Shown piece after piece: positions 41,200 to 64,000 of a stretch of DNA of 64,000 nucleotides (the first letter of the stretch is position 1; each line of letters begins with the position of its first letter). The notes under the pieces were generated by a model. It saw only the letters and a program-made list of their open reading frames with translations. It was not told where the DNA came from and did not search any database. This DNA is from an uncultured Ignavibacteria bacterium (lineage in GTDB: Bacteria > Bacteroidota > Ignavibacteria > SZUA-365), in contig CAJXVM010000010.1 in assembly GCA_913061095.1 (NCBI GenBank), positions 1-64,000 on the forward strand. Direction: 5' to 3'. The position numbers and the translations under genes are program-made.

Positions 41200-41345
41200 C
41201 CCATTAATATTTTTTAATGCGCTGTTCAGCGTGCCGAAAGGATGGGGGGCTATCTTTCATCCCATCAAAGCTGCCGTCCTCGCACGGCATGCCCTCGAAA
41301 CCGAGCGGATGCCGTATCCGCTTCGCTCGCACACACAGGAAATCC

Positions 41346-43973: not shown

Positions 43974-44009
43974 CGGAACAGAACGCAATTCACCCATACA
44001 GGTGCGATC

Positions 44010-45806: not shown

Positions 45807-45827
45807 TCCCCGGTCTCATTGACAGCC

Positions 45828-48377: not shown

Positions 48378-49459
48378 TGGTACGTGTCTTTGTCATAGCG
48401 CAATCTGCCGCCCGTGCCCAGAGAATTCGCAGCGTTCTGTCGCTCGATCATGAAATCGACACGGTGCGACTGAGTTTCGATGATGACGAGTTCATGTCGC
48501 AGCTCTCCACTTCCAATGCACAGATCGTTGCGCTCGATGCCGCCTGCGGACCCGCTGACGTGCATCGGATGACACAGGAAATCATGCACAAGCATCCTGT
48601 GCCGGTTGTCATCCTCGCGGAGAGAAGTGCTGATCAGGCCGGTACACGTTCGATACAGGCACTGGAAGACGGTGCGCTGACCGTGCTCGAGCTCCCACCC
48701 GAGAGTGATAACGTGGGAGCATCGTCCACAGGTGCGGGCGAGCTGTGCAGGAATCTGCGTCTTATGTCGGAAGTAAAAGTGGTGCGAAGATGGGACAGCA
48801 CGCGCTTCGAATCGTTCCAGCGCATCATGCATCCCGCGCAGGAGAATGCGGAGAGCCGTCCTCCCGTTCATATTGTCGCAATCGGCGCATCTGCAGGCGG
48901 CACACAGGCGCTCCAGCAGGTGTTCGGCGGGATCCATGAGACATTTCCCGTTCCCATTCTCGTTGTTCAGCATATTGCCAAGGGATATATTACCGGATTG
49001 ACACGCTGGCTCGACGAACAGACCCCGCTGCGTGTCCGCATTGCGGAGAACGGCGCGATTCCGGAGGCCGGGACGGTGTATCTCGCACCGGATGACGCAC
49101 ACTTGACTGTCGATTCCGACCGTCGTATTCTGTTATTGCACGATGCTCCCGTAAATGGATTCCGACCATCCATAGCCCGACTTTTTCAAAGCGTTGCAGA
49201 TGAGTATCAGTCCAACGCCGCTGCTGTTCTGCTCTCCGGCATGGGGAACGACGGTGCGGCGGAAATGCGCACACTGTTCGATCATGGTGCGTGTACGATT
49301 GCGCAGGACAAACGAACGTCGCTGATCCACGGCATTCCGGGTGAGGCGATCAAACTGCGGGCGGCGCGTTTCATCCTTCCACTGCCCGAAATCGGATCTG
49401 CACTCGAGACCGTCGCTGGTGGAGTACGGAACGCGCATCGGATATCCGGCGACGCATAA
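48377..49459 (+). CDS. cheB: CheB methylesterase with degenerate receiver (WspF-like)
   Basis: The 360-residue protein has a C-terminal methylesterase domain with the intact triad Ser172 (IGASAGGTQAL), His199 (VVQHIAKGY) and Asp292 (LSGMGNDGAAEM), which removes methyl groups from the receptor. The N-terminal domain has the receiver fold length, but the acidic pair at the end of strand 1 is replaced (VFVIAQSAA), the usual phospho-acceptor region reads ALDAACGPAD with only Asp54 remaining, and the invariant Lys of strand 5 is missing. It should therefore not be phosphorylated normally. It is coupled to cheA by a one-base overlap. Confidence 0.93.
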   Translation: MVRVFVIAQSAARAQRIRSVLSLDHEIDTVRLSFDDDEFMSQLSTSNAQIVALDAACGPADVHRMTQEIMHKHPVPVVILAERSADQAGTRSIQALEDGALTVLELPPESDNVGASSTGAGELCRNLRLMSEVKVVRRWDSTRFESFQRIMHPAQENAESRPPVHIVAIGASAGGTQALQQVFGGIHETFPVPILVVQHIAKGYITGLTRWLDEQTPLRVRIAENGAIPEAGTVYLAPDDAHLTVDSDRRILLLHDAPVNGFRPSIARLFQSVADEYQSNAAAVLLSGMGNDGAAEMRTLFDHGACTIAQDKRTSLIHGIPGEAIKLRAARFILPLPEIGSALETVAGGVRNAHRISGDA

Positions 49460-49477
49460 GGATCATTCTGAGAAACG

Positions 49478-50788
49478 ATGATGGCAACCGGCATAGAAAT
49501 ACTCGTTGTTGAAGACAGTCCCACGCAGGCGCTGAAGCTGAAGTACATCCTCGAGAAGCAGGAGTACACCGTCCGCCTCGCAGTCAACGGCAGGGAAGGC
49601 CTTGAGGCAGTCAGGCAGCGGCGTCCCACACTGGTTATTTCGGATGTCCTCATGCCAGAAATGGACGGCTACGAATTCTGCACGGCGATCAAGACTGACG
49701 AGGAGTTGAAGGATCTTCCCGTCATCCTGCTGACGACACTGTCAGACCCGCAGGATATTATTCGCGGCCTTGAAAGCGGAGCCGACAACTTCCTCAACAA
49801 GCCCTACAGCGAGGAGGCGCTTCTTTCGCGCATCAAGTACATCCTCATCAATCTCGATGTGCGGTCACGCATGCGCACGGGGATGGGGATAGAGATTTAT
49901 TTCGCGAACAAGAAGCATTACCTGACCTCGGAGCGGATTCAGATCATCGACCTGCTCCTTTCCACCTACGAGAATGCCGTCGAGAAGAATGCGGAGCTCG
50001 AGAAGGTCAACAAGCAGCTTCGCAGCATGCAGGAAGAGCTTGAGAAAAACAATGAACAACTGAAACTGCTCAACGAGCAGAAAAATATGCTGCTCGGGAT
50101 GGCGGCGCACGATCTCCGAAATCCGCTCTACCTGATCGAGGGATACAGTGAATTCCTGGGCAAGGACAATGCGGACAATCTCACCGAAGAGCAGCACACG
50201 ATCATTTCAGCCATTCAGTCCAGCAGCAGCTTCATGGTGCAGATGATCAATGATCTCCTCGACGTGCAGAAGATCGAGACAGGGAAGCTGGATCTGAACA
50301 TGCAGCAGGCGGATTTCAATGCCGTGCTGGATACCGTACTCGAGCGCGTCGCGTTCACCGCGGACAAAAAAGGCATCGATCTTTCCGTGCAGCGCGTTGA
50401 GACGCTGCCGGCTTTTATCTTCGATCCCGCCCGTATCGAGCAGGTCATCTCGAATCTCATCGACAATGCCATCAAATTCTCGTTTAAAGGCTCGGTCATC
50501 GAGATATCCTATCAGTACACTGAACAGGACCTCGTATTTTCCGTGCGGGACCATGGTCCGGGCATCCCCGAGAAGGAAATCGGTTCGCTGTTTCGTCCGT
50601 TCAACACGACGAGTGTCAAGCCGACGGGGAACGAGCGCAGCACCGGACTGGGACTCGCGATTGCGCAGAACATCGTTGTCAGACACCGGGGACGTATATG
50701 GGTTGAGAGTGAAGAGGGCAAGGGTTCCACCTTCAGCTTCTCGCTGCCCGTCACGCTGACCGAAACAGCGCCCGTGCGAGCCCGATAA
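49478..50788 (+). CDS. Receiver-histidine kinase, likely output of the chemosensory system
   Basis: The 436-residue soluble protein has an N-terminal receiver (VVEDSPTQALKL, Asp56 in LVISDVLMPEMDGYE, Lys in FLNKPYS), a helical coiled linker (about residues 150-200, rich in NKQLRSMQEELEKNNEQLKLLNEQ), HisKA with His211 (MAAHDLRNPLYLI) and HATPase (NLIDNAIKFSFKG, DHGPGIP, STGLGLAIA). It takes the place occupied by WspR (REC-GGDEF) in Wsp operons. The CheA-REC hybrid probably phosphorylates its receiver to control its own kinase activity. Partner regulator unknown; the OmpR-type regulator directly downstream is a candidate. Confidence 0.92.
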   Translation: MMATGIEILVVEDSPTQALKLKYILEKQEYTVRLAVNGREGLEAVRQRRPTLVISDVLMPEMDGYEFCTAIKTDEELKDLPVILLTTLSDPQDIIRGLESGADNFLNKPYSEEALLSRIKYILINLDVRSRMRTGMGIEIYFANKKHYLTSERIQIIDLLLSTYENAVEKNAELEKVNKQLRSMQEELEKNNEQLKLLNEQKNMLLGMAAHDLRNPLYLIEGYSEFLGKDNADNLTEEQHTIISAIQSSSSFMVQMINDLLDVQKIETGKLDLNMQQADFNAVLDTVLERVAFTADKKGIDLSVQRVETLPAFIFDPARIEQVISNLIDNAIKFSFKGSVIEISYQYTEQDLVFSVRDHGPGIPEKEIGSLFRPFNTTSVKPTGNERSTGLGLAIAQNIVVRHRGRIWVESEEGKGSTFSFSLPVTLTETAPVRAR

Positions 50789-50806
50789 ACACTCCTTCTT
50801 CGGAAT

Positions 50807-50835
50807 TTGCAAGTTTTCCCGCGTTGCATTAAACT
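50807..50835 (+). promoter_or_regulatory. Candidate promoter of the OmpR/kinase pair
   Basis: TTGCAA (50807-50812), a 17-bp spacer and TAAACT (50830-50835) lie about 35-60 bases upstream of the response-regulator ATG, so this pair may be transcribed separately from the che operon. Confidence 0.45.
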
Positions 50836-50868
50836 GCCCGCTGGTTCTGCAACACATATTCGGCTGCC

Positions 50869-51546
50869 ATGCGTTTACTCATCGTCGAAGATGAACTCAA
50901 AGTTTCCCAGTTCCTTCAGAAAGGCTTCGAGGAGGAACTGTTTTCCGTTGATACCGCCGAAGACGGCGACAAGGGCCTGTTCATGGCCCTGACCGAGAGC
51001 TATGATGTCATCATTCTCGATCTCATGCTCCCGAAAAAGAACGGGGTGGAAGTCCTCAAGGAATTGAGGAAGGAAAAGAATACGCCGGTACTCGTGCTGA
51101 CCGCGAAGGGACAGCTCGAGAACAAGGTCGAGGTGCTCAACATCGGCGCCGACGATTATCTTACCAAGCCTTTCGCCCTCGCTGAGTGCATCGCGCGCGT
51201 CCGTTCGCTGCTGCGCCGCGCGCAGATGGACAAACCGACAAACGTGCTCACCGCCGATACGCTTGAACTCGATCAGATTCAGCACGTCGTCAGGCGTGAT
51301 GATCAGGTCATCGATCTCACCGTCAAGGAGTTCAAGCTGCTCGAGTATCTGTTGCGCAACAAGAACACCGTGCTGACCCGTTCCGCCATCATCGAGCATA
51401 TCTGGGAAATCACCTTTGATACGGGCACGAATGTGCTTGATGTATACATGACGCGGCTGCGGAAGAAGGTGGATGACGATTATGAAGTGAAACTCATCCA
51501 CACCATTCGCGGCGTCGGCTACATCCTCAAGGACGATGAGGAATGA
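50869..51546 (+). CDS. OmpR-family response regulator
   Basis: The 225-residue protein is a receiver (IVEDELKVSQF, phospho-acceptor Asp51 in VIILDLMLPKKNG, Lys in YLTKPFALAECIAR) joined to an OmpR/PhoB winged-helix DNA-binding domain (LTVKEFKLLEYLLRNKNTVLTRSAIIEHIWE, VDVYM-like LDVYMTRLRKKV, TIRGVGYILK). It is a transcription factor that most likely dimerises on tandem promoter sites when phosphorylated. Its stop overlaps the downstream kinase as ATGA. Targets are unknown; the pilus-like genes that follow the kinase are candidates. Confidence 0.94.
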   Translation: MRLLIVEDELKVSQFLQKGFEEELFSVDTAEDGDKGLFMALTESYDVIILDLMLPKKNGVEVLKELRKEKNTPVLVLTAKGQLENKVEVLNIGADDYLTKPFALAECIARVRSLLRRAQMDKPTNVLTADTLELDQIQHVVRRDDQVIDLTVKEFKLLEYLLRNKNTVLTRSAIIEHIWEITFDTGTNVLDVYMTRLRKKVDDDYEVKLIHTIRGVGYILKDDEE

Positions 51547-52544
51547 AACTGGGTCCGCGCCAAAAAGCGGTGCTGCTGTACGGCTCCACCATCTTTGGTG
51601 CGTTCGCGTTCATTCTGCTGCTGGTCATCACCGTCTTCACCCGCCAGTTCCCGACCTTCAATTTCACCGGTATCGGTATTCTGTTCATTCCCGCCGGCCT
51701 GTTCTTCGCCTTCACCATCGGATGGATTATCTCGCAGGAACTGCATCCGCGCAAGAACCAGGATTCGCTCGATATCGACCTGGAGGAAGCCGGGGTCGAT
51801 GACCTTGATTTCCAGCAGAAAATGCACAGCGTGCACAGCACGATTGAAAACATGCAGACGGCGTACGAGCAGATCCAGAACTTCTCCGCCAATGCATCGC
51901 ACGAGCTCCGCACGCCGCTGACCATCATGCGGGGAGAAATCGAACTGGCGCTTCGCAATCCGAAGAAACCGGAGCAATACCAGCAGCTGCTTGGAAGCCT
52001 GCTCGAAGAGATCATGCGCCTCTCACGCATTCTTGACGATCTGCTGCTGATCGCCAAGACGGAGATCGGGGAGCGTCCGATTGAGATGCAAACGCTTGAT
52101 CTCGGGGAAATCGTGGAGGAGATCGCCGACGAGGCGGAAATGTTCGCCGCGCAGGCGGATATAACGTTCGAACTCGGGGAGACCTGCGAAGCATTCATCG
52201 AAGGGGAACCGCTGCGCATCCGGCGTGTTCTGCTCAATCTTATTGACAACGCCGTCAAGTACAACAGCCGCAACGGTAGCGTGCGTCTCTCGATGGAAAA
52301 GGACGATGAAATGGTCTCCGTCTCCGTGACCGACACGGGTATCGGCATTCCGGAAGAATCCATTCCGCGCCTGTTCGAACGCTTTTACCGCGTCGACGAC
52401 AGCGCATCGACAGGCCGGAAAGGCACCGGTTTGGGACTGTACCTCGTGCAATGGATCGTCAAGAATCACGGGGGAACGATCGCGGTGCAGAGCGAAAAGG
52501 GGAAGGGAAGCACGTTCACCGTGCGCCTGCCAATGAAGGTATAA
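51543..52544 (+). CDS. Sensor histidine kinase partner of the OmpR regulator
   Basis: The 333-residue kinase has two N-terminal membrane helices (about residues 10-32 and 42-63) with a very short (about nine-residue) external loop, so it probably senses membrane state or a partner protein rather than an external ligand. There is no HAMP domain. HisKA carries His120 (SANASHELRTPLTIM) and HATPase shows NLIDNAVKYNSRNG, DTGIGIP and FYRVDDSASTGRKGTGLGLYLV. It is coupled to the regulator by a four-base overlap. Confidence 0.93.
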   Translation: MKLGPRQKAVLLYGSTIFGAFAFILLLVITVFTRQFPTFNFTGIGILFIPAGLFFAFTIGWIISQELHPRKNQDSLDIDLEEAGVDDLDFQQKMHSVHSTIENMQTAYEQIQNFSANASHELRTPLTIMRGEIELALRNPKKPEQYQQLLGSLLEEIMRLSRILDDLLLIAKTEIGERPIEMQTLDLGEIVEEIADEAEMFAAQADITFELGETCEAFIEGEPLRIRRVLLNLIDNAVKYNSRNGSVRLSMEKDDEMVSVSVTDTGIGIPEESIPRLFERFYRVDDSASTGRKGTGLGLYLVQWIVKNHGGTIAVQSEKGKGSTFTVRLPMKV

Positions 52545-52751: not shown

Positions 52752-53168
52752 ATGGGTACGCAACAGCTTCTTCTCATCGTTCTCGGTGTGATCATTGTCG
52801 GTATCGCGGTCGTGGTCGGTATCAATATCTTCGGTACAAACGCGGAGCAGGCGAACAAGGACGCCATCACGCAGGATTGTCTCCGCATCGCAGCGGCAGC
52901 CCAGGGCTTCTACCGCAAGCCGACGATGCTCGGTGGTGGAAACAACTCTTTCGCGACCATCACCATCGAGGATTGCGGCATGGCCGCCGATGACGGAACC
53001 CCGCTGACCGGTTCGAACGTGAACGCAGCGTATACTGTCGAAGGAACGGCCACGGCCTTTACCGTTACCGGGGCTTCGGCTACGGAGACAGGGAAATCCA
53101 TTGCCGTCACTGTCGACATGACTCAGCCTGAAGCCGACCGCATCACCGTCGATGATACTGGCTGGTAA
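52752..53168 (+). CDS. Pilin-like protein 1 with non-canonical N-terminus
   Basis: The 138-residue protein begins MGTQQLLLIVLGVIIVGIAV, one long hydrophobic helix as in type IV pilins, but with only MG as a possible leader and with no Glu at mature position 5. After the helix (GINIFGTNAEQANKDAI) comes a small globular domain with two cysteines, Cys43 and Cys75, conserved in its paralogue and likely disulfide-linked, and an ending DDTGW. CAGGAG precedes the ATG. It is followed by a strong terminator, so it can be expressed alone at high level, as expected of a major subunit. Confidence 0.8.
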   Translation: MGTQQLLLIVLGVIIVGIAVVVGINIFGTNAEQANKDAITQDCLRIAAAAQGFYRKPTMLGGGNNSFATITIEDCGMAADDGTPLTGSNVNAAYTVEGTATAFTVTGASATETGKSIAVTVDMTQPEADRITVDDTGW

Positions 53169-53212
53169 GATTTGCCCCATGCAGTGCACTTGGCGCTGCC
53201 TCAAAATTTCGG

Positions 53213-53243
53213 ACGCCGCTGATGAAATCAGCGGCGTTTTTTT
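53213..53243 (+). terminator. Rho-independent terminator after pilin-like gene 1
   Basis: An 11-bp stem (ACGCCGCTGAT at 53213-53223 with ATCAGCGGCGT at 53227-53237) with loop GAA runs directly into a T-tract (53237-53243). It separates the first pilin-like gene from its paralogue. The remaining bases to 53378 show no further feature. Confidence 0.92.
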
Positions 53244-53378
53244 CTTTCAGTAATTTCATGTGGAATTCAGAGAAATGAAAGCTCCATCGATTAGATTACC
53301 CAGCGCATGAGAATACGGAAGCAGGTCCATTGTTGGTTAATCCCTGTGTGACATCACAGGTGGCAGAGGAGTATCCCC

Positions 53379-53795
53379 GTGGGCAACCAGCAGATTTTAC
53401 TCATCATTCTCGGTGTCATCGTTGTCGGCATTGCTGTGACGATCGCTCTATTTGTATTTGGAACGAACTCCGACCAAGCCAGCAAGGATGCCTTGACGCA
53501 TGGCTGCCTGAACATCGTCTCATCGGCACAGGCATATTTCCGTAAGCCCCGCATGCTCGGAGGCGGTGGAAACGCATTCGACGGCATCGAGATCGTCGAT
53601 TGTGGTATGACTGACACCGGTGACGGAACAGGAAGCGACCTCAATGGCACCTATCGCATCATAACCGCCGCCGGCAATGATCTGGTTGTCGAAGGCATCT
53701 CCGCGACAAACAGCAGCCAGATGGTCACAGTTGCGGTGGATATGAATGCCATCAGTAGCACACAACCATACATGATTACCTACAGTGGCTGGTAA
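53379..53795 (+). CDS. Pilin-like protein 2, paralogue of pilin-like 1
   Basis: The 138-residue protein is the same length as pilin-like 1 and clearly paralogous: N-terminus MGNQQILLIILGVIVVGIAV, cysteines at 43 and 75, shared FRKPRMLGGGGNAF segment and GW ending. The start is a GTG at 53379 with AGAGGAG ending eight bases before it; weak start use would lower output relative to copy 1. It too lacks the Glu5 of type IV pilins. The following 53796-54019 contains no gene and no clear terminator. Confidence 0.8.
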   Translation: MGNQQILLIILGVIVVGIAVTIALFVFGTNSDQASKDALTHGCLNIVSSAQAYFRKPRMLGGGGNAFDGIEIVDCGMTDTGDGTGSDLNGTYRIITAAGNDLVVEGISATNSSQMVTVAVDMNAISSTQPYMITYSGW

Positions 53796-54019
53796 TCGAC
53801 ATCCTCCAAAACGCCTGCTCCCCGTCCCCGCCTGCCGCTTCTTCCTCCCTGAGCTTCACATCCCGCCTGATACAACCACAAAGAACCTTTCTCCTTTGTA
53901 ATACGCAGTTAAGTCTCCGTTAAGAATCGGCATCTATCTTAGACATGAGCCAAGGAGAAGGGTGGCTGTATTTCTCCCCCGCGCTCGCACAGGAAGTAGG
54001 ACTATTCGGAAGGTGTATC

Positions 54020-55465
54020 ATGGCGGATTTTCGATTTCAGGGTGTTGTCCCCTCCGGGAAGATCATCACCGGGACCGTCAGTGCGAATAACGCGGCGGAA
54101 GCGAAGAAGAAAATCCAGGAACTCGCGAAGGGACGCTCGTTCCGGCTCGACAAACTGGAAAAGCGCACGCTGTTCATCTACAAGGCGCAGAAGGGGGAGA
54201 AGGTCATCGAGGGCGAGCAGAAGGCCTATTCCAAGGCCGAAGTGGAGAACGCCCTTTCATCGATGGGATACAAGGTCGTCTTTGTCCGCAAGAAGCTTGC
54301 CGTGCCCGTGGGGAAGCCGCCGATCGCGGACGTCATCACCTTCGTCCGTCTCAGTGCTGATCTCCTACGCGAGAAACTTCCGTTCAATGAAGTGTTGAAC
54401 CTGCTCTCAAACGATATTGACAACAAAGTGCTGCGTGAAACGCTCAAGGATATCAATACCGATCTGCGCAAGGGAGCCGAAAGTGAGCGTGTGTTCCTGA
54501 AGTACGAGCACGTTCTCGGCAAGTTCACTGCAAAGATGCTGGGACTTGCCTCGAAGAGCGGTGCCATGGCAGAGATGTACGACTCGACTGCCAAGTTTCT
54601 CGAACGCCGGCTCGAGTTCAAAAAGAGTATGAAAAGCGCCATGCTCATGCCCATGATCACGCTGGTGCTGCTTATCCTTGCGACAATTTTTTATGTCGCG
54701 TACATCTTCCCCGAAACTGCCCGCATGTTTATCAAGTACGGCATTGAACTTCCGCCAATGACGGAAGCGACGCTTGAGTTTTCAGACTGGATCGTCGCGA
54801 ATATTCTGTTCTTCATCATCGGGGGTGTCGGATTGGCTGCCGGTGTTTTCATCCTCTTTACGAATCAGCAGAGCCGGATTTGGGTGGATAAAGTATCCTT
54901 TCGCATCCCCGTCATGGGAGCGCTCATTCACAAAACCGCCATCGAGGTTTTCTGCCGCGTGTTCTACTCGCTGTACAGCGGTTCCGGCGAGAACATCGAC
55001 GTGATCAAGACCGCGGCCGAGGCCACGGGCAACAAGTATTTCGAATCTCAGATCAAGGACATTACGATTCCGATGATGCTCAAGCACGGAAAAGGATTGC
55101 ACGAGTCTTTCGAGGCCTCTGAGGTATTCACGAAAACCGCGTTGTCGCGCTTCCATGCCGGTGCGGAAACCGGTATGGTGCGCGAGACGTCGCTGCAGCT
55201 CGCAAACTATTATGAGCGCGAAACGACGTACAAACTGAAATCCGTCGTCGATTTCATGCAGCTCTGGGTCGCACTGATCATCATGATCGTCATGACGGCC
55301 ATCACCATCGTGTCGTCGGAAACGGCAGTCATCAAGCCGAAATCGGCACCGGGACTGGGCGAAATCATCCCGCAGCTTCTGTTTGTCTCATCACCATTCA
55401 TTCATCAGATCAAAAACGTTATTCATGGATGCCGCAGCTTCCTTGCTCGAAAGAAAGATCGATAA
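54020..55465 (+). CDS. pilC: PilC/GspF-family inner-membrane assembly protein
   Basis: The 481-residue protein starts at the ATG at 54020 with GGAAGG upstream, beginning MADFRFQGVVPSGKIITGTV; an upstream in-frame ATG at 53945 is less likely. Two T2SF domains (about residues 115-235 and 315-440) each carry the helical pattern seen in FRLSADLLREKLPFNEVLNLL and EVFCRVFYSLYSGSGENIDVIKTA. Three to four membrane helices are visible (MPMITLVLLILATIFYVAYIF, IVANILFFIIGGVGLAAGVFI, LWVALIIMIVMTAITIV). It is the platform protein that links ATPase motion to pilin movement. Its end overlaps the ATPase gene by 41 bases. Confidence 0.9.
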   Translation: MADFRFQGVVPSGKIITGTVSANNAAEAKKKIQELAKGRSFRLDKLEKRTLFIYKAQKGEKVIEGEQKAYSKAEVENALSSMGYKVVFVRKKLAVPVGKPPIADVITFVRLSADLLREKLPFNEVLNLLSNDIDNKVLRETLKDINTDLRKGAESERVFLKYEHVLGKFTAKMLGLASKSGAMAEMYDSTAKFLERRLEFKKSMKSAMLMPMITLVLLILATIFYVAYIFPETARMFIKYGIELPPMTEATLEFSDWIVANILFFIIGGVGLAAGVFILFTNQQSRIWVDKVSFRIPVMGALIHKTAIEVFCRVFYSLYSGSGENIDVIKTAAEATGNKYFESQIKDITIPMMLKHGKGLHESFEASEVFTKTALSRFHAGAETGMVRETSLQLANYYERETTYKLKSVVDFMQLWVALIIMIVMTAITIVSSETAVIKPKSAPGLGEIIPQLLFVSSPFIHQIKNVIHGCRSFLARKKDR

Positions 55466-57218
55466 GGTCGGCGTAGCCCTTCTGCACAAGGGGATTGTCG
55501 ACCGGGAAACGATCTCGAAGGCGATCTCCACGAAGGAGAAGGAAGCCGGCCGGCGTCACCGCAGTCTCGCGGAAATCCTCGTAGACGAATACAGTCTCGA
55601 CCACCACACGGTGTTCTCCGAGGTCGCACGGATCTACGCCTTCAAGACGATGAAAATCGACGAGGCGATGACCGAGCGGCGCGTCAACCTCATCCGGCAG
55701 ATGGTCGAGTCGCTTACGGCGGAACAGCGCAGCGTGCTATTCAAGGCGCGCACGCTTCCCCTGCAGTTCGATGCGCGGACGCCGGACAAGCTCATACTCG
55801 TTTCGGCCATCCCGATACACCGGGAGATCCCCCGGATCGCCAACTTCTTCCGTGCGCTCAAGTACGAAGTCTACTACGCGGAACAGAAGCAACTCAATCC
55901 GCATATCGACAACCTTCTCCAGGCCGACAACGAATTCCTCGAGAGTATCAAGGAGATGGAAGGCGAGCTCGAGGAAGGAAGTCTCGATTCGGGGATCGAC
56001 GAAGCGGAACTCGACCAGGAAATCAACAAGTCGATGCTCGTCAACCTCTTTGAGGGCTGCCTCGTGGAGGCGGTGCGTCAGGGTGTCAGTGACGTGCATA
56101 TTTTTCCGACGACACGGACCGTAACGGAATTCCATTTCCGAGTCGACGGAAAGCTGTCGATGTGGAACAAGGTGGAAGGCACGCGTCCCGAAGCCGTGCT
56201 CGCCGTGGTGAAAGACCGCAGCATGAACATTGACCGCTTCGAGCGCGACGCGGCACAGGACGGGTTCATCCAGCGTACGATCGACAATACCGTGATCCGC
56301 TTTCGTGTGTCAGTGCTTCCGATCGCCGGCAGTGAATATCAGCAGAAATTCGAAAGCATCGTCATCCGCATCCTTGACAGCCGCAAGGTGATCAAGGATA
56401 TCGCGAAAATCGGTTTTCAGAAAAAAGCCTACGAGTGGTTCCAGGACTCCATCACAAAACCGCAGGGCATGGTCATTCTCACCGGTCCGACGGGAAGCGG
56501 AAAAAGCACGACACTCGTCGCGGCACTCTATTCGGTGATTACACCGCAGGTGAACGTCCTCACCGTGGAGGATCCGGTCGAGTATGTCATCGACGGCGCG
56601 CGGCAGATCAAGATTTCACACAAGGTGAATTTTGAACAGGCCATCAGAGCGATTCTGCGTCATGATCCCGACATCGTCATGGTCGGTGAGATGCGCGACA
56701 AGACCACGGCCGACATCGCCATCAAGCTTGCGAACACCGGTCACCTGACGTTTTCCACGCTCCATACGAACGATGCACCGAGCGCGGTGACGCGCCTGTT
56801 CAAAATGGGAATCGAACCCTTCCTCATCGCATACGCGATCAATCTGGTCGTTGCCCAGCGTCTGCTCCGCAGGCTGTGCAATGCGTGCAAGCGGCCGGTG
56901 AAGGATTTGAATATGGACCAGCTGCATGCCGTGGGTTTCACCGATGAAGAAATCGAAGAAACGACCTTTTACGAGCCGGTCGGCTGCTCGAAGTGCGTGA
57001 AAGGATTCAAAGGGCGTGCGGCGATCCACGAGGCGCTGTACTTCTCGAAAGCCGTGCGCAAGGCCATTTTTGAATCCGGGGACGACATCGACGAGGATGA
57101 GATCCGTCAGATCGCAATCAGTGAGGGGATGCTGACGCTGCGCGCCTCGGCACGGGAGCGTGTCAAGGAAGGTGTGAGCTGCGTTTCGGAAGTCATTGCA
57201 GCGACGATGTCGGATTGA
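55425..57218 (+). CDS. pilB: PilB/GspE-family assembly ATPase
   Basis: The 597-residue ATPase starts at the ATG at 55425, inside the end of pilC, and begins with an MshEN-type N-terminal domain (RKIDKVGVALLHKGIVDRETI through LAEILVDEYSLDHH). The core shows Walker A GPTGSGKST (354-362), the Asp box TVEDPVEY, Walker B DIVMVGEMRDKTTAD, the His box STLHTNDAPSA and a zinc-binding four-cysteine site (Cys485, 488, 521, 524). All catalytic motifs are intact, so it should power pilus extension or pseudopilus assembly. Confidence 0.95.
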   Translation: MDAAASLLERKIDKVGVALLHKGIVDRETISKAISTKEKEAGRRHRSLAEILVDEYSLDHHTVFSEVARIYAFKTMKIDEAMTERRVNLIRQMVESLTAEQRSVLFKARTLPLQFDARTPDKLILVSAIPIHREIPRIANFFRALKYEVYYAEQKQLNPHIDNLLQADNEFLESIKEMEGELEEGSLDSGIDEAELDQEINKSMLVNLFEGCLVEAVRQGVSDVHIFPTTRTVTEFHFRVDGKLSMWNKVEGTRPEAVLAVVKDRSMNIDRFERDAAQDGFIQRTIDNTVIRFRVSVLPIAGSEYQQKFESIVIRILDSRKVIKDIAKIGFQKKAYEWFQDSITKPQGMVILTGPTGSGKSTTLVAALYSVITPQVNVLTVEDPVEYVIDGARQIKISHKVNFEQAIRAILRHDPDIVMVGEMRDKTTADIAIKLANTGHLTFSTLHTNDAPSAVTRLFKMGIEPFLIAYAINLVVAQRLLRRLCNACKRPVKDLNMDQLHAVGFTDEEIEETTFYEPVGCSKCVKGFKGRAAIHEALYFSKAVRKAIFESGDDIDEDEIRQIAISEGMLTLRASARERVKEGVSCVSEVIAATMSD

Positions 57219-57279
57219 CAGCGGACGTGACTGGGCGTGATCATATCGAAATGAACTCCATTATCTGCAGAGGCAGGAC

Positions 57280-57801
57280 ATGAATACAGGACAGATGGCA
57301 CTGACAATCGGGGCGTTCATGCTGCTGGGAATGGTGATGCTGAATTTTCGCGGACTCAATTTCCAGAATGAAGATGTTCTGGATAACAACGAGTATACGC
57401 AGAAAGCCGTCGCCATCGGCCGGTCCCTCATGGATGAGATACAGGGCAAGCCGTTTGATGCCGTCTACAACTGGAAAGGCATCGTCAAGCTGGAAGATCT
57501 GACAGCCTGCGGACCGGGTTCGGCGGAGTCCTATCATGGAAGCACGCCATTCAACGACATCGATGATTTCCATCGTCAGGTATTCACCAGTCCGGCACCG
57601 GGGAGCACACCGGGCGATGAAACCCCTCAGTGCCTTCATGACACATGGGGCTACACCGTGCGTTGTGCCGTCACATACGTCCGTGATGATGACCCCACGC
57701 AGGCCGTATGGTACCGCACATGGTCAAAGCTCGTGATCCTGGAAATCACAAATCAATTTTCCGAAGACACTTTACGCATGCAATATCTCGCAACACATTA
57801 A
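57280..57801 (+). CDS. Minor-pilin-like protein A
   Basis: The 173-residue protein begins MNTGQMALTIGAFMLLGMVML, a single hydrophobic N-terminal helix like that of minor pilins, then a soluble domain with three cysteines (ACGPGSAE, PQCLHDTW, VRCAVTYV). If the Gly at position 4 were the cleavage site, the leader would be four residues and the mature start Gln rather than the usual Phe/Met, with no Glu5. AGAGGCAGGA precedes the ATG. It is the first of three small pilin-like genes between the two ATPase genes. Confidence 0.7.
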   Translation: MNTGQMALTIGAFMLLGMVMLNFRGLNFQNEDVLDNNEYTQKAVAIGRSLMDEIQGKPFDAVYNWKGIVKLEDLTACGPGSAESYHGSTPFNDIDDFHRQVFTSPAPGSTPGDETPQCLHDTWGYTVRCAVTYVRDDDPTQAVWYRTWSKLVILEITNQFSEDTLRMQYLATH

Positions 57802-57813
57802 AGAGAGAGCGCC

Positions 57814-58452
57814 ATGAGCAGCTATCTTGACATCGTCGGTTCCGTCATCATCGCCGGGATGATCATCCTGAATTTCGCCGTGTTCATGGGCGAACGACAG
57901 GAGTCGCAGATCGAATCCACGAACAAGGTGACGGCACAGACAGAAATGAGCGACATCACGCAGACACTGCGGCATGACCTCCGCAAGCTCGGCTACGGCT
58001 GTGATTCGCTTCCGATCATCAATGCATCGCCCCGTCAGCTTGTATTCCGTGCAGATCTGGATAACGACGGAAAGATCGACACTGTCGGATACGCCTTTGA
58101 CGATGTTGTTGACGGAGCCACACTCGCATCAGTGACGACAAAAACCACAACACTGCAGTCCGAAGTGACAACGAGTGAATATTCCACCGAAACACTGAAA
58201 GTTTCGACTCTCGGCTATTCGCTGCACCGTGTCGTCAACGGTCAGGTATTCGAAGGTGGTGATTCAGACATGACAGGATTTCATTTCAGGTATTACACAA
58301 CGAATTCCTACGGCACGCTGATCGAAACGACAACGGTCGGAGACATCCGGGCAATCGGTGTCGTGCTGCGTCTGCGCAGCAAAATGAAGCAGGATGGCGA
58401 ATACAAGTATTCGCTGAACGAATTCACCGTTTCGCCGAAGAATCTCATTTAA
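57814..58452 (+). CDS. Minor-pilin-like protein B (PilW-like layout)
   Basis: The 212-residue protein begins MSSYLDIVGSVIIAGMIILNF, a hydrophobic helix. The following region (MSDITQTLRHDLRKLGYG) and the C-terminal beta-rich half (PRQLVFRADLDNDGKIDTVGYAF, GFHFRYYTTNSYG, IGVVLRLRSKM) closely follow the PilW/GspJ minor-pseudopilin pattern of an early amphipathic helix and a beta-sheet domain. It lacks a typical leader peptide and Glu5. GAGAGAG precedes the ATG. It probably forms part of the tip or priming complex. Confidence 0.75.
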   Translation: MSSYLDIVGSVIIAGMIILNFAVFMGERQESQIESTNKVTAQTEMSDITQTLRHDLRKLGYGCDSLPIINASPRQLVFRADLDNDGKIDTVGYAFDDVVDGATLASVTTKTTTLQSEVTTSEYSTETLKVSTLGYSLHRVVNGQVFEGGDSDMTGFHFRYYTTNSYGTLIETTTVGDIRAIGVVLRLRSKMKQDGEYKYSLNEFTVSPKNLI

Positions 58453-58467
58453 TCCCGGAGGACGATC

Positions 58468-59496
58468 ATGGGCCAACAGTCACTGATCATTGTATTGATG
58501 TCATCGCTTTTGCTCTCGATTTCCGTCCTCGGGATGATGGGCATGTGGAACTGGTCGACGGAAACCACTGCCACACTGTTTGAGCGCGAGCAGGCACTGA
58601 ATATTTCCCGCAGCGGCGTCAACAAGGCGGTGTCCATCCTCAGAAAGAAGAAGGTCTGGCGCACCGGATTCACCGGTCTGCGCGTGGCCGGCGGTTCGGT
58701 CGATGTCGCCGTCCGTGATCTCGGACCGGACACCGTCCGCATCACCTCTGTGGGCACCATCAACGGCGTGAGTCACCAGTCGATCGTAGAGGCAAAGCTC
58801 AGCTCCATTTTCCCGACGGTTGAAAGTGCGCTGACCGTGTTCGGCGACTCCGTCGAGATCGCAAACATCGGCAAGTCATTCGATGTGGACGGACGCGACT
58901 GGCTTCCCGGTGGGAAGGTGCTGGGATCGTACCCTCCGGTAAACGGCATTGGCGTGCAGTCCGCAAAGATTGTCGAGGATATCAAAAAGAACATGGATCC
59001 GAAGGTCTACGAGAATGTTAAAGGTGCGGGAGGCGAGCCGTCCGTCGGATCATTCGGGAACGTGGATCTTGCGACACTGCACAAATTCTATAAGGACAGG
59101 GCGACACAGACACTTCCTGCCGGCACGTACAGCTATAACGGCGTCTTCGGCTCCATGGCGGATCCTGAAATCGTCTACGTTCCCGGCGATCTCATCTGGA
59201 AAGGAACGATCGCGGGTGCCGGTATTCTCGTTGTGGACGGTTCCCTCAAACTGCAGGGGAATATCGAATGGGAAGGCATCGTGCTCTCCCTCAGCGGAGA
59301 TGTCGATATTGAAATCGGAGGGACTGGAAATCCGCATATCCATGGAACGGTCTGGGTCGGAAATACCTCGTCAACCGGTATCACCAATGTGAACATCACC
59401 GGCAACCCGTCCATCAAATACAGCTATCTCACGTTAATGACCGTGCTGGGCAATCTCGGTCTGCTGGATGTTGAGATCTACAAGTATTACGAATAA
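58468..59496 (+). CDS. Minor-pilin-like protein C (PilX/GspK-like)
   Basis: The 342-residue protein begins MGQQSLIIVLMSSLLLSISVL, again with an MG-Q-Q start and a single hydrophobic helix, then an amphipathic helix (REQALNISRSGVNKAVSIL), a domain with IRITSVGTINGVSHQSIVEAKLS, and a C-terminal repetitive beta-rich part (GDLIWKGTIAGAGILVVDGSLKL, GNIEWEGIVLSLSGDVDIEIGG) reminiscent of a beta-helix. The N-terminal layout fits PilX/GspK-type minor pilins. GGAGG precedes the ATG. There is no Glu5. Confidence 0.75.
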   Translation: MGQQSLIIVLMSSLLLSISVLGMMGMWNWSTETTATLFEREQALNISRSGVNKAVSILRKKKVWRTGFTGLRVAGGSVDVAVRDLGPDTVRITSVGTINGVSHQSIVEAKLSSIFPTVESALTVFGDSVEIANIGKSFDVDGRDWLPGGKVLGSYPPVNGIGVQSAKIVEDIKKNMDPKVYENVKGAGGEPSVGSFGNVDLATLHKFYKDRATQTLPAGTYSYNGVFGSMADPEIVYVPGDLIWKGTIAGAGILVVDGSLKLQGNIEWEGIVLSLSGDVDIEIGGTGNPHIHGTVWVGNTSSTGITNVNITGNPSIKYSYLTLMTVLGNLGLLDVEIYKYYE

Positions 59497-59543: not shown

Positions 59544-59710
59544 TGAAAAACGTGCCGAAAATATTTTTACGATTTTTCCGAACTGTGCTTCCCCTCGTGG
59601 AATTAAATGATTATATTTCAACGAGTCCTGATCAAAACATCAAGCACAGGTTGAGAAAACGGCACGGAACTGCAAATGAATCTGTGAATATTGGAAGAAC
59701 AGCATCATGA
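59544..59710 (+). CDS. Possible small basic ORF before the PilT-like gene
   Basis: The 55-codon frame encodes a basic protein (start MKNVPKIFLRFFRTVLPLVE). Its TGA (59708-59710) overlaps the next gene's ATG (59707-59709) as ATGA, suggesting coupling. The stretch is more AT-rich than its neighbours and no close family is known. A GAGA element lies upstream, but the ribosome-binding site is weak. It may be only intergenic sequence. The remaining bases 59497-59543 show nothing. Confidence 0.3.
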
Positions 59711-61026
59711 GTCAGGATCCCGTTACCACCGCGCCGAAAACCTCCGCAGCAAGGGGGGCGTCTCCTCGTGCCGCTGAGGCGCCTGTGATACCGGAACGGC
59801 TTGTCGCCAACGCCATGAAAGTGCTTGATTTCGTGGTCAAGGACATGCCTCCGCATTACTTCGGTACGGAGAAGCAGGAGTTCATCGCAAAGCGTCTTGG
59901 TACACTCGACGACAAAGCCATCCAGGTGCTCCGCATGTTTTACGAACGCATTCTCCATCGGATGCGCGAACTCGACGCTTCCGATATTGACGTCGGAAGT
60001 TTTGGGACGCGCGGAGAGATCTGGTTCCGGGTGCACGGGAACAAACTTCCCCAGAAAAACCTGCCAAAGCTCGAGTCTCCGTTCTGTGATGTGCTCATTC
60101 AGTCGCTTGTCATGCCGCGACAGCGCCAGGTTCTCATCGATAAACGCAGTCTCGATTTTTCCTATCATGTGGAGGAGGATGGGGAGCGGTATCGGTATCG
60201 CGGAACCGCGTATTTCGACCTTGATGCAGTCGGCATGAACATGCGCGCCATCACGGCAAAGATTCGTCCCTACAGCAGTTATCAGTTCCATCCCAACATC
60301 ACGAACATCGTGAACCTGAAGCACACGAAGGAAGGACTGATTCTTGTGACGGGAATTACAGGCTCCGGAAAGAGCACCACGCTCGACGCAATCATCGATG
60401 CAAACAACAATTCCGTCGATGCGCATATCATCCTGATCGGGGCGCCGATCGAGTACGTACATTCACCCGAACGCTCTGTCATCCGGCATCGCGAGGTGGG
60501 GCGTGACGTGCTGTCGTTCAAGGATGGCACCGTTCAGGCGCTGCGCCAGGATCCCGATGTCGTCGTGATCGGTGAGATGCGCGATCCGGAGACCATTATG
60601 GCGGCGCTTGAGATTACCGATTCCGGTCACAAGGTCTTTTCCACGCTGCATACATCATCTGCTGTCGAGAGTCTCGATCGCATCATCGGCGAAGTGCCGC
60701 CTGTCGAGGCCGACCGCGTGCGCAACCGGCTCGCGGACGTGCTGAAGCTCGTCATCTCCCAGAAGCTCGTCCCGACCCTCGATAAGAAGCGGGTGCTTGC
60801 GAAAGAAGTCCTTATTGTCACCCCCTCTGTGCGCGCGGCGATCAAGAACGGCAACACCGGCGAGATCTATCAGATGATTACTGAAGGCGGACAGCTGGGT
60901 ATGATCACGATGGAGCAGGATCTGTACCGCCTGTTCCGCAACAATGTCATCAGTATCGATGAAGCAATAAACTATGCGAACAACAAAAAACGGATCAGGC
61001 AGCTGATCAACAAGCAGCTCAATTGA
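59707..61026 (+). CDS. pilT: PilT-like ATPase with altered Asp box
   Basis: The 439-residue ATPase of the secretion-ATPase family is PilT-like in its core: RSLDFSYHVE and YRGTAYFDLDAVGMNMRAI (PAS-like N-domain), Walker A GITGSGKST (residues 216-224), Walker B DVVVIGEMRDPETI and His box STLHTSSAVES. The Asp box reads LIGAPIEYVH instead of the usual TIEDPIEFVH, losing the first Glu and the Asp; the Pro-Ile-Glu part remains. An extra 60-residue N-terminal extension precedes the core. It may drive retraction or be partly inactive. Confidence 0.9.
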   Translation: MSQDPVTTAPKTSAARGASPRAAEAPVIPERLVANAMKVLDFVVKDMPPHYFGTEKQEFIAKRLGTLDDKAIQVLRMFYERILHRMRELDASDIDVGSFGTRGEIWFRVHGNKLPQKNLPKLESPFCDVLIQSLVMPRQRQVLIDKRSLDFSYHVEEDGERYRYRGTAYFDLDAVGMNMRAITAKIRPYSSYQFHPNITNIVNLKHTKEGLILVTGITGSGKSTTLDAIIDANNNSVDAHIILIGAPIEYVHSPERSVIRHREVGRDVLSFKDGTVQALRQDPDVVVIGEMRDPETIMAALEITDSGHKVFSTLHTSSAVESLDRIIGEVPPVEADRVRNRLADVLKLVISQKLVPTLDKKRVLAKEVLIVTPSVRAAIKNGNTGEIYQMITEGGQLGMITMEQDLYRLFRNNVISIDEAINYANNKKRIRQLINKQLN

Positions 61027-61048: not shown

Positions 61049-62815
61049 ATGAGTACTCCGGTACGACCACAACAAATCTGTATTGGCCTCTCCATCGAAG
61101 GAGCCATGCTGCGCCTGGCCGCTCTCGGAAGGACAGGGAACCGGCTCAGCGTGCTCGACCTGGCTTCCATGCCCCTCCCGGTAAAACAGTTCGCGGGCGG
61201 TTCGTTGGATGAAGAGGAACAGAAATCCGATAATCCCTTCGATGATTCAGCCGCTGCGGCACCCGAGACGGAAGGTGATGCGGATTCCAACCTCGATCTG
61301 GGATCCATTCGGGAATTCGTTGCGACACATTACCTGCCGGGCGCATCCATTTCGCTTGGTTTTGAAGTCCCGTATGTGCGGACGTTCCTCCTTCCCGTCG
61401 ACAAAAAGGACACTCCGTCGAAAATTCGCACGAAGGTTGTCGAAGAAGTCGGAAAATCCCTCAATCTTGAACTTGCCAAACACGCTGTCTCCCTGACGAA
61501 GGCGAGCGACAAGCAGGTACTTGCCATCGCGCGTGTCGAGGAGCCGCCGCTCATCGACATCTGCGCCTCTCCGCAGGGCGGAGACCGACGTGCGCCGCGA
61601 ATCAATTTTGTGACGAGCAACGAGATTGCCCTGATCAATCTCGTTCGTGTGCATTTCCGCGCGGAACCGGAAGACCTCGTGCATGTTATTCACGTCGATG
61701 ACGATGTGACGCACTTCTTCGTCATGCGCGGACACGACATCGAGTACATTGCGCCGTCGATTCAGCAGGGCGCGCATGACGCGCATCTTGTGTCGACGCT
61801 CTACAACCGCATCGAACTGACCGCCGAAAGTGCCGGATATCTCAACCCCGACCGCGTGGTGCTCAGTGGAAAGGCCGAGGAGATCGGGCTGAAAGAGGAG
61901 ATCCTCGAAAACAATCCCGAAGTGGTGTTTCACTCGCTGAAGAAACTCCGTGTCGGACATTCCGACGACAAGGATATCCTTCGCGACATGAACAACTATC
62001 TCGTGCCCATTTCGCTTGCCTGGCAGGAATTGCAGCCGCGTAATGAACATTTTTACCGCGTCGACGTTCTCCCGGCGAAGGTGCGCGAGGAGCAGAAGCG
62101 CTTCAAACTCGCATGGCATGGCTATCTGCTCCTGCTGCTCCTTTTTGTGATCGTGACCGTGCTGACTGTCATGGGGCTGCAGCGTCAAGCCGAGATCGGC
62201 ACGCTTTCATCAGCACTGGCATTCGATCGCAAGCAGATCGAGGAGCAGCGAATCATTGTCGATCAGATCAATGAGCTTGAAACGCGCTCCACCGCGATCC
62301 GAAATGCCACAACGACTCTTGATACGCTGTTGCTGAATTCGGAACTGTGGACGGAGACGCTCGATACGCTCGCGGTCAGTGCGGGCGCTCTTCGAGATAC
62401 CTGGGTCAGCGAGATGAAAATGGATCAGGATGGTGCGATCACTGTTACCGGATATTCAATGAAACGATCCAGCATCCCGACCTTTTCCGATGCGATCGGT
62501 ACTACGATGCTTCGGGAAATCACTGTGCAGGAAATCGGGGAGGCAAAAGTGTTTCGGTATGATGTCCGCCTGCAGCCCGACAGCCTTTATCCGTACAGCA
62601 ACTCACGTGCGGCACGCTGGCATGATTCCGTCTCAACGGCCCTCGGCAGTATGGCGGAAGAAACGGCTCCGCAAAGCGGTGTTCGACAGTCCGCTCAAAC
62701 CGCCTCTCCGCAGTCGGAGGGAACGCCGCCCGTGAATTCACCCGCCGAGGAAATCCCGCCCACGGAAGTCCCGCCGGACCGCGAAGCGCCGCCGCCGGAA
62801 CCAGAGATCAGGTAG
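61049..62815 (+). CDS. PilM-PilN fusion-like inner-membrane scaffold protein
   Basis: The 588-residue protein has an N-terminal actin-like PilM half (QQICIGLSIEGAMLRLAAL, VPYVRTFLLPVDKKD, NPDRVVLSGKAEEIG) with an acidic insert (about residues 55-85), then one membrane helix (YLLLLLLFVIVTVLTVMGL, about 355-375) and a PilN-type periplasmic part with the helix-rich region following the membrane span and a beta domain. The C-terminal 75 residues are Pro/Glu-rich and probably disordered. In most pilus systems PilM and PilN are separate and bind tightly; here they appear as one chain. Confidence 0.8.
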   Translation: MSTPVRPQQICIGLSIEGAMLRLAALGRTGNRLSVLDLASMPLPVKQFAGGSLDEEEQKSDNPFDDSAAAAPETEGDADSNLDLGSIREFVATHYLPGASISLGFEVPYVRTFLLPVDKKDTPSKIRTKVVEEVGKSLNLELAKHAVSLTKASDKQVLAIARVEEPPLIDICASPQGGDRRAPRINFVTSNEIALINLVRVHFRAEPEDLVHVIHVDDDVTHFFVMRGHDIEYIAPSIQQGAHDAHLVSTLYNRIELTAESAGYLNPDRVVLSGKAEEIGLKEEILENNPEVVFHSLKKLRVGHSDDKDILRDMNNYLVPISLAWQELQPRNEHFYRVDVLPAKVREEQKRFKLAWHGYLLLLLLFVIVTVLTVMGLQRQAEIGTLSSALAFDRKQIEEQRIIVDQINELETRSTAIRNATTTLDTLLLNSELWTETLDTLAVSAGALRDTWVSEMKMDQDGAITVTGYSMKRSSIPTFSDAIGTTMLREITVQEIGEAKVFRYDVRLQPDSLYPYSNSRAARWHDSVSTALGSMAEETAPQSGVRQSAQTASPQSEGTPPVNSPAEEIPPTEVPPDREAPPPEPEIR

Positions 62816-62827
62816 AGGAGAGATATT

Positions 62828-63736
62828 ATGCCCTATGCCATACGAAACAGCATTCTGCTTGTTGTCCTTCTTGTCCTCGTCGGTGGGGGTGGTGCGGCGT
62901 ACATTTTTTTCTATCAGGATCCCCGTATCGAAGAACTCGAAGCCGAGCGCAGAAAAATCCAGGAACAGCTTGGCGATGCGGACGACATGTTTGACCGGCT
63001 CGTTTCTGTACAGGAGCGTGTCGAAGTACTGAACGCATCGTGGAGACAGCGACCGAAGACGATGCCGAACGAGGAGATTGCCAGCACCACCAATGCGTAT
63101 CTGAATGATATCCTTGTATTGAGCTCTGCACTGGATCTCAACGTCTTCACTCAGGAGCAGGTTCCGCAGAATGGCTGCGGGTACGTCCGCTATCATCTCG
63201 CCGGGCAGGGTGCATTCGAGAGCTTTGCGCGCCTCGTGCAGTACCTGGAACACGGTCCGCGTCTCATGAAGCTGACGAATTTCGATGTGCGCGAGGTTCA
63301 TATGGTGGATGATGAACTGGGACGAATTCAGCATACCGTTCAGTTCGATATCGATCTCCTCGCATACTATTCTGAGCAGGTGCCCTTCGCGGATACACTG
63401 ACAACGCTCTCGCTCGCATCGACGCGGTTCGCACCGATATCATATGATCCATTCACATCACTGATCACGCCGGAGATCCCGCCCAACACCTTCGATCTGC
63501 CCAATGTTGAGAAATCGACACTGCTTGCGATCATGAAAGGGCGCGCATTCATCAGCGATCAGAACAGCCAGCTTATCATGCTTTCGGAAGGTGATGAGGT
63601 CTATCTCGGCTATGTTTCCAAAATCATGCCGGAACGTCGCCAGGTGCTGTTCCTTCTCAACAAGGGCGGCATCATCGAGCGTTACATGCTGACACTTCGG
63701 CTTGAAAACCTGTTCCTCGGAAAGCAAAGGAATTGA
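62828..63736 (+). CDS. PilO-PilP-like inner-membrane protein
   Basis: The 302-residue protein has an N-terminal membrane helix (ILLVVLLVLVGGGGAAYIFFY), a coiled coil (IEELEAERRKIQEQLGDADDMF) and a PilO-like domain (FARLVQYLEHGPRLMKLTNFDVRE). The last about 75 residues (LPNVEKSTLLAIMKGRAFI, LSEGDEVYLGYVSKIMPERRQVLFLLNKGGI) resemble the PilP-type domain that links the inner-membrane complex to the secretin. PilO-PilP fusion is not usual, but the pattern fits. It sits 12 bases after the PilM-PilN gene. Confidence 0.75.
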   Translation: MPYAIRNSILLVVLLVLVGGGGAAYIFFYQDPRIEELEAERRKIQEQLGDADDMFDRLVSVQERVEVLNASWRQRPKTMPNEEIASTTNAYLNDILVLSSALDLNVFTQEQVPQNGCGYVRYHLAGQGAFESFARLVQYLEHGPRLMKLTNFDVREVHMVDDELGRIQHTVQFDIDLLAYYSEQVPFADTLTTLSLASTRFAPISYDPFTSLITPEIPPNTFDLPNVEKSTLLAIMKGRAFISDQNSQLIMLSEGDEVYLGYVSKIMPERRQVLFLLNKGGIIERYMLTLRLENLFLGKQRN

Positions 63737-63746
63737 GGATACTCCC

Positions 63747-64000
63747 ATGAATATCAGACTCACTCACATCATCACTCTGTTTCTGCTGCTCCTGTTCAGC
63801 TCCAACGCATTTGCGCAGGACAGGCTTCCCGTGCGCCAGTATACTGCGCCCGAGGAATTGATCTCCATGGATGCCGCGACTACGCTCACGCAGGCAGTCG
63901 ACATCTTCAATAATGCCAGCAAACGCTTTCGCGGGAAACCGATCATTTTCGAAGAAGAAAGCAAGGATCCCATCGGGATCAATGTCACACACATGCACTG
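63747..64000 (+). CDS. Start of a probable secretin or secretin-associated protein (truncated)
   Basis: This is the first 84 codons of a gene cut off by the window edge. A GAGGATA ribosome-binding site precedes the ATG at 63747. A signal peptide (HIITLFLLLLFSSNAFAQ) is followed by DAATTLTQAVDIFNNASKRFRGKPIIFEE, a helix-strand pattern similar to the N0/STN domain at the start of secretins such as PilQ or GspD. As it directly follows PilO-PilP-like and PilM-PilN genes, the outer-membrane secretin is the most likely identity. Confidence 0.7.
   Translation, partial: MNIRLTHIITLFLLLLFSSNAFAQDRLPVRQYTAPEELISMDAATTLTQAVDIFNNASKRFRGKPIIFEEESKDPIGINVTHMH

What the first reader, a model, noticed from the sequence alone, without database searches (positions are those of the whole stretch)
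52752..59496. Pilin-like proteins without the type IV pilin leader or Glu5
Five proteins carry a pilin-type N-terminal hydrophobic helix next to PilC, PilB, PilT and PilM-P homologues, yet none shows a K/R-G|F-T-L-I-E processing site. Three begin MG-(x)-Q-Q, one MNTGQ and one MSSYLD, so any leader would be about two to four residues or absent, and mature position 5 is not Glu. Either the prepilin peptidase recognises a minimal site or processing does not occur.
Basis: partly seen in the sequence, partly recalled or inferred. Interest (0 to 1): 0.72.

Follow-up and report, generated by a model that had tools for sequence, protein, structure and literature searches.

The report
Type IV pilins born without leaders
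A whole lineage of bacteria seems to build type IV pili from subunits whose genes start right at the mature end, so the cutting enzyme thought to be essential for every such pilus is missing and apparently not needed.

Summary
All five pilin-like genes (52752-59496) sit in a complete PilC-PilB-PilT-PilMN-PilOP-PilQ cluster and start at, or a residue or so before, the point where a mature pilin begins. Of 126 distinct major-pilin homologues, all have a start codon at this point; 117 have no in-frame start upstream, and 24 have a stop within two codons. None of 91 minor-pilin homologues has a canonical leader.

The host genome (100% complete) has no prepilin peptidase. In 197 genomes of the class, 105 have PilC but only 8 have PilD, and in those 8 PilD goes with canonical pilins of a second system. 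Published work on Melioribacter noted pilTQBC but no pilA or pilD (PMC3534657); this would explain why.

Best reading: a type IV pilus variant in which the start codon replaces leader cleavage. Asp5 (after Met removal) in the PilW-like subunit and Gln5 elsewhere fit; one PilW match (E=0.008) sets the register. Mature N-termini, membrane insertion and assembly are inferred, not shown. Cloacimonadota share the lineage but usually also encode PilD.

The parts
52752..53168 (+). leaderless major pilin 1, MGTQQLLLIVLGVIIVGIAVVVGINIF..., 138 aa
   Evidence: AF2 model pLDDT 92, helix 3-55 then antiparallel strands; profile's best PDB hits are type IV pilins, E 0.018-0.16, weak
53379..53795 (+). leaderless major pilin 2, (GTG)MGNQQILLIILGVIVVG..., 138 aa, 48% identical to pilin 1
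54020..55465 (+). PilC inner-membrane platform (start chosen at ATG 54020)
   Evidence: Pfam T2SSF 3.9e-31; NCBIfam PilC 1.5e-39, below curated cut-off; own clade apart from canonical PilC
55425..57218 (+). PilB extension ATPase (ATG 55425, overlaps end of pilC)
   Evidence: Pfam T2SSE 5.2e-98; TIGR02538 PilB 5e-127, below curated cut-off
57280..57801 (+). leaderless minor pilin, PilV/GspI-like by position, MNTGQMALTIGAF...
   Evidence: no family hit, assignment by gene order
57814..58452 (+). leaderless minor pilin, PilW/GspJ-like, MSSYLDIVGSV...; invariant Asp6 = position 5 after Met removal
   Evidence: profile hits Thermus pilin TTHA1219 (PDB 5g23) E=0.008 with D6 on the Glu of its SLLEL motif
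58468..59496 (+). leaderless large minor pilin, PilX/GspK-like by position, MGQQSLIIVLMSS...
   Evidence: no family hit for this protein, assignment by gene order and size
59707..61026 (+). PilT-family retraction ATPase
   Evidence: TIGR01420 6.6e-95, 318.2 bits against cut-off 319.1
61049..62815 (+). PilM-PilN fusion-like protein
   Evidence: NCBIfam Amuc_1101 PilM-like 1.8e-4, weak Pfam PilN 0.18; conserved in loci
62828..63736 (+). PilO-like protein with PilP-like C-terminal part
   Evidence: Pfam PilO 6e-4, just below cut-off; conserved LxEGDEVYLGYL motif; the PilP part is my reading
63750..64000 (+). start of PilQ secretin (runs on to contig position 65024, L047:3750-5024)
   Evidence: Pfam Secretin 2e-28; PilQ 6.4e-30, below curated cut-off

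Best explanation
This is a type IVa-like, PilT-containing pilus machine whose major and minor pilins are translated directly at mature length. The start codon takes the place of the leader and its cleavage site, so no prepilin peptidase/methylase is needed. Shown: the machinery genes, the leaderless starts across many families, the missing peptidase. Inferred: the pilin goes into the membrane by its N-terminal hydrophobic helix with its N-terminus at the cytoplasmic face; where residue 2 is Gly, Ser, Ala or Thr, ordinary methionine aminopeptidase removes the initiator Met, otherwise Met stays as residue 1; the subunit is then equivalent to a processed pilin and is extracted and polymerised by PilB/PilC and retracted by PilT. 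The acidic residue 5 of canonical pilins survives as Asp5 in the PilW-like subunit and is replaced by Gln in the major pilins.
For: Start sites: 126/126 major pilins have ATG/GTG/TTG exactly here, 117 with no in-frame start upstream, 24 with a stop within 2 codons; none of 91 minor pilins has a Gly-ending leader. Peptidase: none in own 100%-complete genome nor in closed single-contig genomes with the system (G022, G113, G119, G152, G164, G182); 97/105 PilC+ class genomes lack it, and a PilD profile built from the class finds only the same 8 (two extra matches are fragments). PilD tracks canonical PF07963 pilins (8/8 against 5/189, p=3e-11) but is independent of the leaderless system (11/102 against 27/195, p=0.58). 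In the same genomes, canonical pilins at other loci have ordinary leaders ending G|[FY]-[ST]-x-x-E, and their PilC forms a separate clade at 100/100 support. Register: the PilW-like profile aligns to TTHA1219 with D6 on Glu, so residue 2 corresponds to mature residue 1. In Cloacimonadota the PilV-like gene reads MN[FLM][ML]EM, canonical F-T-L-I-E-L with Met in place of Phe1, an in-frame stop directly before ATG in five loci. AF2 model of pilin 1: one helix from residue 3 to 55 then a beta-sheet.
Against: No protein data: mature N-termini, membrane insertion and pilus assembly are untested. A non-homologous peptidase that removes two or three residues cannot be excluded by sequence. Foldseek gave no significant PDB match for either model (the second model is poor, pLDDT 68), and sequence matches of the major pilin to known pilins are weak (E 0.018 or worse). 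The PilW register rests on a single match at E=0.008. Met excision would not give an identical register in every protein (MNTGQ beside MGTGQ, MNVILD beside MSVILD). The PilE1 match of the major pilin puts mature residue 1 at residue 4, not 2. The starts of a few divergent minor pilins (L123, L126) are uncertain. In Cloacimonadota most genomes with the system also encode PilD (73 of 86), so there the peptidase could in principle act.
Confidence: 0.8

Rival explanations
1. An unrelated, unrecognised peptidase cuts a minimal two- to three-residue leader (MG| or MGx|), doing the job of PilD.
For: Gly2 is invariant in the major pilins and Gly is the canonical residue before the cut; the PilE1 alignment leaves about three extra N-terminal residues; in Cloacimonadota PilD is usually present.
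Against: Residue 2 is N/G/S/T in the PilV-like and S/A/T/G/N/I in the PilW-like family, so no site common to all four families exists; every gene of the window cluster is a known pilus part, leaving no spare peptidase gene there.
Confidence: 0.12
2. The proteins are pilin-like but do not polymerise: the helix stays as a permanent membrane anchor in a signalling or secretion device.
For: No leader, no Glu5 in the major pilins; weak similarity to known pilins; a chemosensory gene set lies upstream.
Against: Full PilB, PilC, PilT, PilMN, PilO, PilQ set conserved in order; separate major pilins, often several paralogues next to pilC, plus a trio of minor pilins; N-terminal helix residues are the most conserved part, as expected for a filament core.
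Confidence: 0.07
3. Wrong start codons: true canonical leaders lie upstream and PilD was missed through assembly gaps.
For: Many genomes are draft assemblies; 9 of 126 pilins have an upstream in-frame start.
Against: 117 of 126 have none, and stops lie directly upstream in several; closed genomes also lack PilD; control genomes are detected.
Confidence: 0.01

Closest known systems
Type IVa pilus (PilB/PilC/PilT/PilMNOP/PilQ, pilins with class III signal peptide)
   Same: Machinery set, order of minor pilins (V-W-X like), retraction ATPase, secretin, N-terminal hydrophobic helix.
   Different: No leader, no Gly-cut site, no prepilin peptidase/methylase, Gln or Asp rather than Glu at position 5; PilM-N fused and PilO carrying a PilP-like part.
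Bacteroidetes type II secretion system (Cytophaga hutchinsonii CHU_3191-3201, PMC5553014)
   Same: Same broad phylum, GspD/E/F/G-type parts.
   Different: That system encodes a Peptidase_A24 protein (CHU_3197); no PilT was mentioned in the passages read.
Nanoarchaeota type IV filament genes without detectable prepilin peptidase (PMC4471445)
   Same: The one earlier exception without a detected peptidase named in that review.
   Different: An archaeal lineage (N. equitans is host-dependent, from general knowledge); the pilins there were recognised as prepilins, whereas here the leader itself is absent.
MSHA pilus loci without their own peptidase (PMC6668835)
   Same: No peptidase gene in the locus.
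   Different: MSHA genomes encode one elsewhere and may borrow it; here the whole genome has none.

Membership tests
Type IV pilin (class III signal peptide) | 6-26 residue hydrophilic leader ending in Gly | tested here: not met
   No leader possible: upstream stops, no upstream start in 117/126; minor pilins likewise
Type IV pilin (class III signal peptide) | Glu5 in the hydrophobic stretch | tested here: not met
   Gln5 from Met in the 52752, 53379 and 57280 proteins; Asp at position 5 after Met removal in the 57814 protein; none in the 58468 protein
Type IV pilin (class III signal peptide) | About 20-residue N-terminal hydrophobic helix continuing into a long alpha1 | tested here: met
   AF2 helix 3-55, pLDDT 92; sequence
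Type IV pilin (class III signal peptide) | Lollipop fold: alpha1 packed on an antiparallel beta-sheet | tested here: inconclusive
   Secondary structure order fits; Foldseek finds pilins only weakly, E above 1
Type IV pilin (class III signal peptide) | Processed and often N-methylated N-terminus | not testable with these tools
   Needs protein chemistry
Type IV filament machine | Prepilin peptidase in the genome | tested here: not met
   None in own genome; 97/105 PilC+ class genomes without
Type IVa pilus machine | PilB-type ATPase and PilC platform | tested here: met
   (family hits strong, NCBIfam equivalog cut-offs not reached)
Type IVa pilus machine | PilT retraction ATPase | tested here: met
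   TIGR01420 6.6e-95, 318.2 of 319.1 bits
Type IVa pilus machine | PilMNOP alignment complex and PilQ secretin | tested here: met
   PilQ strong; PilO and PilM weak but syntenic
Type II secretion system | No retraction ATPase; GspE/GspD-type ATPase and secretin | tested here: not met
   PilT present; PilB and PilQ models score above GspE and GspD; GspC/L/M not searched separately

The most novel reading that the evidence does not exclude
A deep lineage of type IV pili, spread over several classes of one phylum and Cloacimonadota, works without leader peptides and without prepilin peptidase: the start codon itself defines the mature pilin N-terminus.
Probability: 0.75. Interest if true: 0.85.

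Novelty: new variant of a known kind. Interest (0 to 1): 0.8.

Why it matters
Prepilin peptidase is treated as one of the core parts of the type IV filament superfamily, and pilins are recognised by their leader (PMC6668835, PMC4471445). A large lineage that dispenses with both changes what is essential for pilin insertion, extraction and assembly, and makes testable whether leader removal has any role beyond making a mature N-terminus. It would also explain why annotation reports pili without pilA and pilD in such bacteria (PMC3534657), and shows that peptidase presence is not a safe marker for type IV pili.

Tried and rejected
Upstream alternative starts: rejected. A PilD missed by Pfam: own-genome search at E<=10 gave one chance hit to an 81-aa ORF; a PilD profile from the class added only two fragments. 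Pfam and NCBIfam scans of the pilins and minor pilins: no reliable family. Foldseek with both AF2 models: no significant match; the PilW-like model is poor (pLDDT 68). PDB profile searches of the PilV-like and PilX-like families: nothing useful. A negative correlation of PilD with the leaderless system was expected but is not seen: the two are independent; in Cloacimonadota they usually coexist. A strict rule 'acidic residue at 5 after Met excision' fails for some members. Literature searches in the open library found no description of leaderless type IV pilins. An E. coli record was fetched without use.
Full report
What is there. The window ends in a type IV pilus cluster on the + strand: two paralogous major pilins (52752, 53379), PilC (54020), PilB (55425), three minor pilins (57280, 57814, 58468), PilT (59707), a PilM-PilN-like fusion (61049), a PilO-like protein with a PilP-like end (62828), and the PilQ secretin, which begins at 63750 and ends at contig position 65024. 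The assignments are firm for PilB, PilC, PilT and PilQ at family level, although NCBIfam's strict equivalog cut-offs are not reached; PilMN and PilO rest on weak profile hits plus conserved order.

The start sites. The five pilin-like proteins begin MGTQQ, MGNQQ (GTG start), MNTGQ, MSSYLD and MGQQS. Upstream in-frame stops at 15, 9, 13, 4 and 5 codons, without start codons between, rule out a hidden leader. A search with the first pilin returned 36 loci in MAGs named Ignavibacteria, Melioribacteraceae, Kryptoniota and Cloacimonadota, all starting MG[TQ]QQ. Because MGTQQLLL was one of the search seeds, I repeated the test by fetching neighbourhoods of the PilC gene in 32 places over more than 14 families, and places in other classes of the phylum and in Cloacimonadota. 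In the window, the 36 seed loci, the PilC neighbourhoods and the other-class set, 126 distinct major pilins carry a start codon exactly before Gly2 (121 ATG, 3 GTG, 2 TTG); the pattern used asked for Gly and the polar pair but not for a start codon. 117 have no in-frame start upstream; 63 have a stop within four codons, six directly before the start. Profile searches then found 34, 32 and 25 homologues of the three minor pilins; none has a Gly-ending leader, though the starts of a few divergent ones (L123, L126) are uncertain.

The missing peptidase. The own genome, 100% complete, has no Peptidase_A24 hit; at a permissive threshold one 81-aa ORF scores by chance. In 197 genomes of the class, PilC is in 105, PilD in 8, canonical N-methyl pilins in 13. 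All 8 PilD genomes are among the 13. A PilD profile built from these proteins finds the same 8 with E below 1e-80 and two fragments. Closed single-contig genomes with the system (G022, in the same family as the window, and G113, G119, G152, G164, G182) lack PilD too, so assembly gaps are not the cause. In a 297-genome sample of the phylum, leaderless pilins occur in 102 and PilD in 38, with 11 in both; the two are statistically independent (p=0.58), whereas PilD and canonical pilins are tightly linked in the class (p=3e-11).

Internal control. Genomes G013, G019, G109, G123 and G133 carry both systems. Their leaderless loci keep MG-x-QQ starts (L079, L076, L083, L072, L073), while canonical pilins in the PilD loci of G057, G118, G123 and G133 and in second-system loci such as L097, L098, L100 and L102 have ordinary leaders ending in Gly before [FY]-[ST]-x-x-E. 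A tree of 64 PilC proteins separates the canonical PilC from the leaderless-system PilC at 100/100, the latter including Cloacimonadota; the branch is long, so this shows separation, not the direction of change.

Are they pilins? The AF2 model of pilin 1 is confident (pLDDT 92): one helix from residue 3 to 55 followed by an antiparallel sheet. The major-pilin profile's best PDB matches are geopilin and PilE1, but at E=0.018 and 0.045, and Foldseek is not significant. The PilW-like profile matches Thermus TTHA1219 at E=0.008 over 72 residues, with invariant Asp6 on the Glu of its SLLEL motif, which I take as Glu5; this makes residue 2 the mature residue 1, which is what Met excision leaves. In Cloacimonadota the PilV-like proteins read MN[FLM][ML]EM, the canonical F-T-L-I-E-L with the start Met in the Phe1 place; in five of them an in-frame stop directly precedes ATG. 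Residue 2 there is Asn, which by general knowledge blocks Met excision. The register in the major pilins is less sure: the PilE1 match would put mature residue 1 at residue 4.

Mechanism. The simplest account is that evolution moved the start codon to the mature N-terminus. Topology would then rest on the helix alone, and normal N-terminal Met processing would replace PilD. Shown: starts, machinery, absence of PilD. Inferred: insertion, Met removal, assembly, retraction. A separate minimal-site peptidase is not excluded but has no common site to read across the four families and no candidate gene in the cluster. In Cloacimonadota 73 of 86 genomes with the system also have PilD, so independence from PilD is argued there only by the lack of a leader.

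Known work. PMC3534657 reported pilT, pilQ, pilB and pilC but no pilA or pilD in Melioribacter roseus and concluded that the pilus set was probably incomplete. PMC6668835 and PMC4471445 treat the peptidase and the Gly-ending leader as general features; the latter names Nanoarchaeota as the exception without detected peptidase. I found no description of leaderless type IV pilins in the open library; subscription papers were not searchable.

Noticed in passing
L136:9818-10231 (G000 contig C19, from 33017): A third leaderless pilin paralogue in the same genome, with no recognised pil gene around it, upstream of an ORF that looks like a Lon-type protease.
   Followed up: partly
window 41217-52544: Chemosensory gene set (CheW-like, CheR-like, CheW-like, MCP, CheA-CheY, CheB) followed by response regulators and kinases directly upstream of the pilus cluster; could control the pilus (names are my reading of the sequences).
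   Followed up: no
L091, L092 (genomes G033, G043): A second, diverged system with its own PilC and PilB and leaderless minor pilins but no recognised major pilin beside it.
   Followed up: partly
L103 (G179, closed genome): Canonical GspF-like gene with an in-frame stop in a genome without PilD: possibly a decaying canonical system.
   Followed up: no
L123 (G283): Two consecutive sets of the three minor pilins in one cluster.
   Followed up: no
L078, L079, L095: An additional PilB-like ATPase gene upstream of the leaderless pilins.
   Followed up: no
L148, L149, L150, L153, L155 (Cloacimonadota): PilV-like genes start MN[FLM][ML]EM, keeping Glu5 with Met in place of Phe1, the ATG directly after an in-frame stop.
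   Followed up: yes
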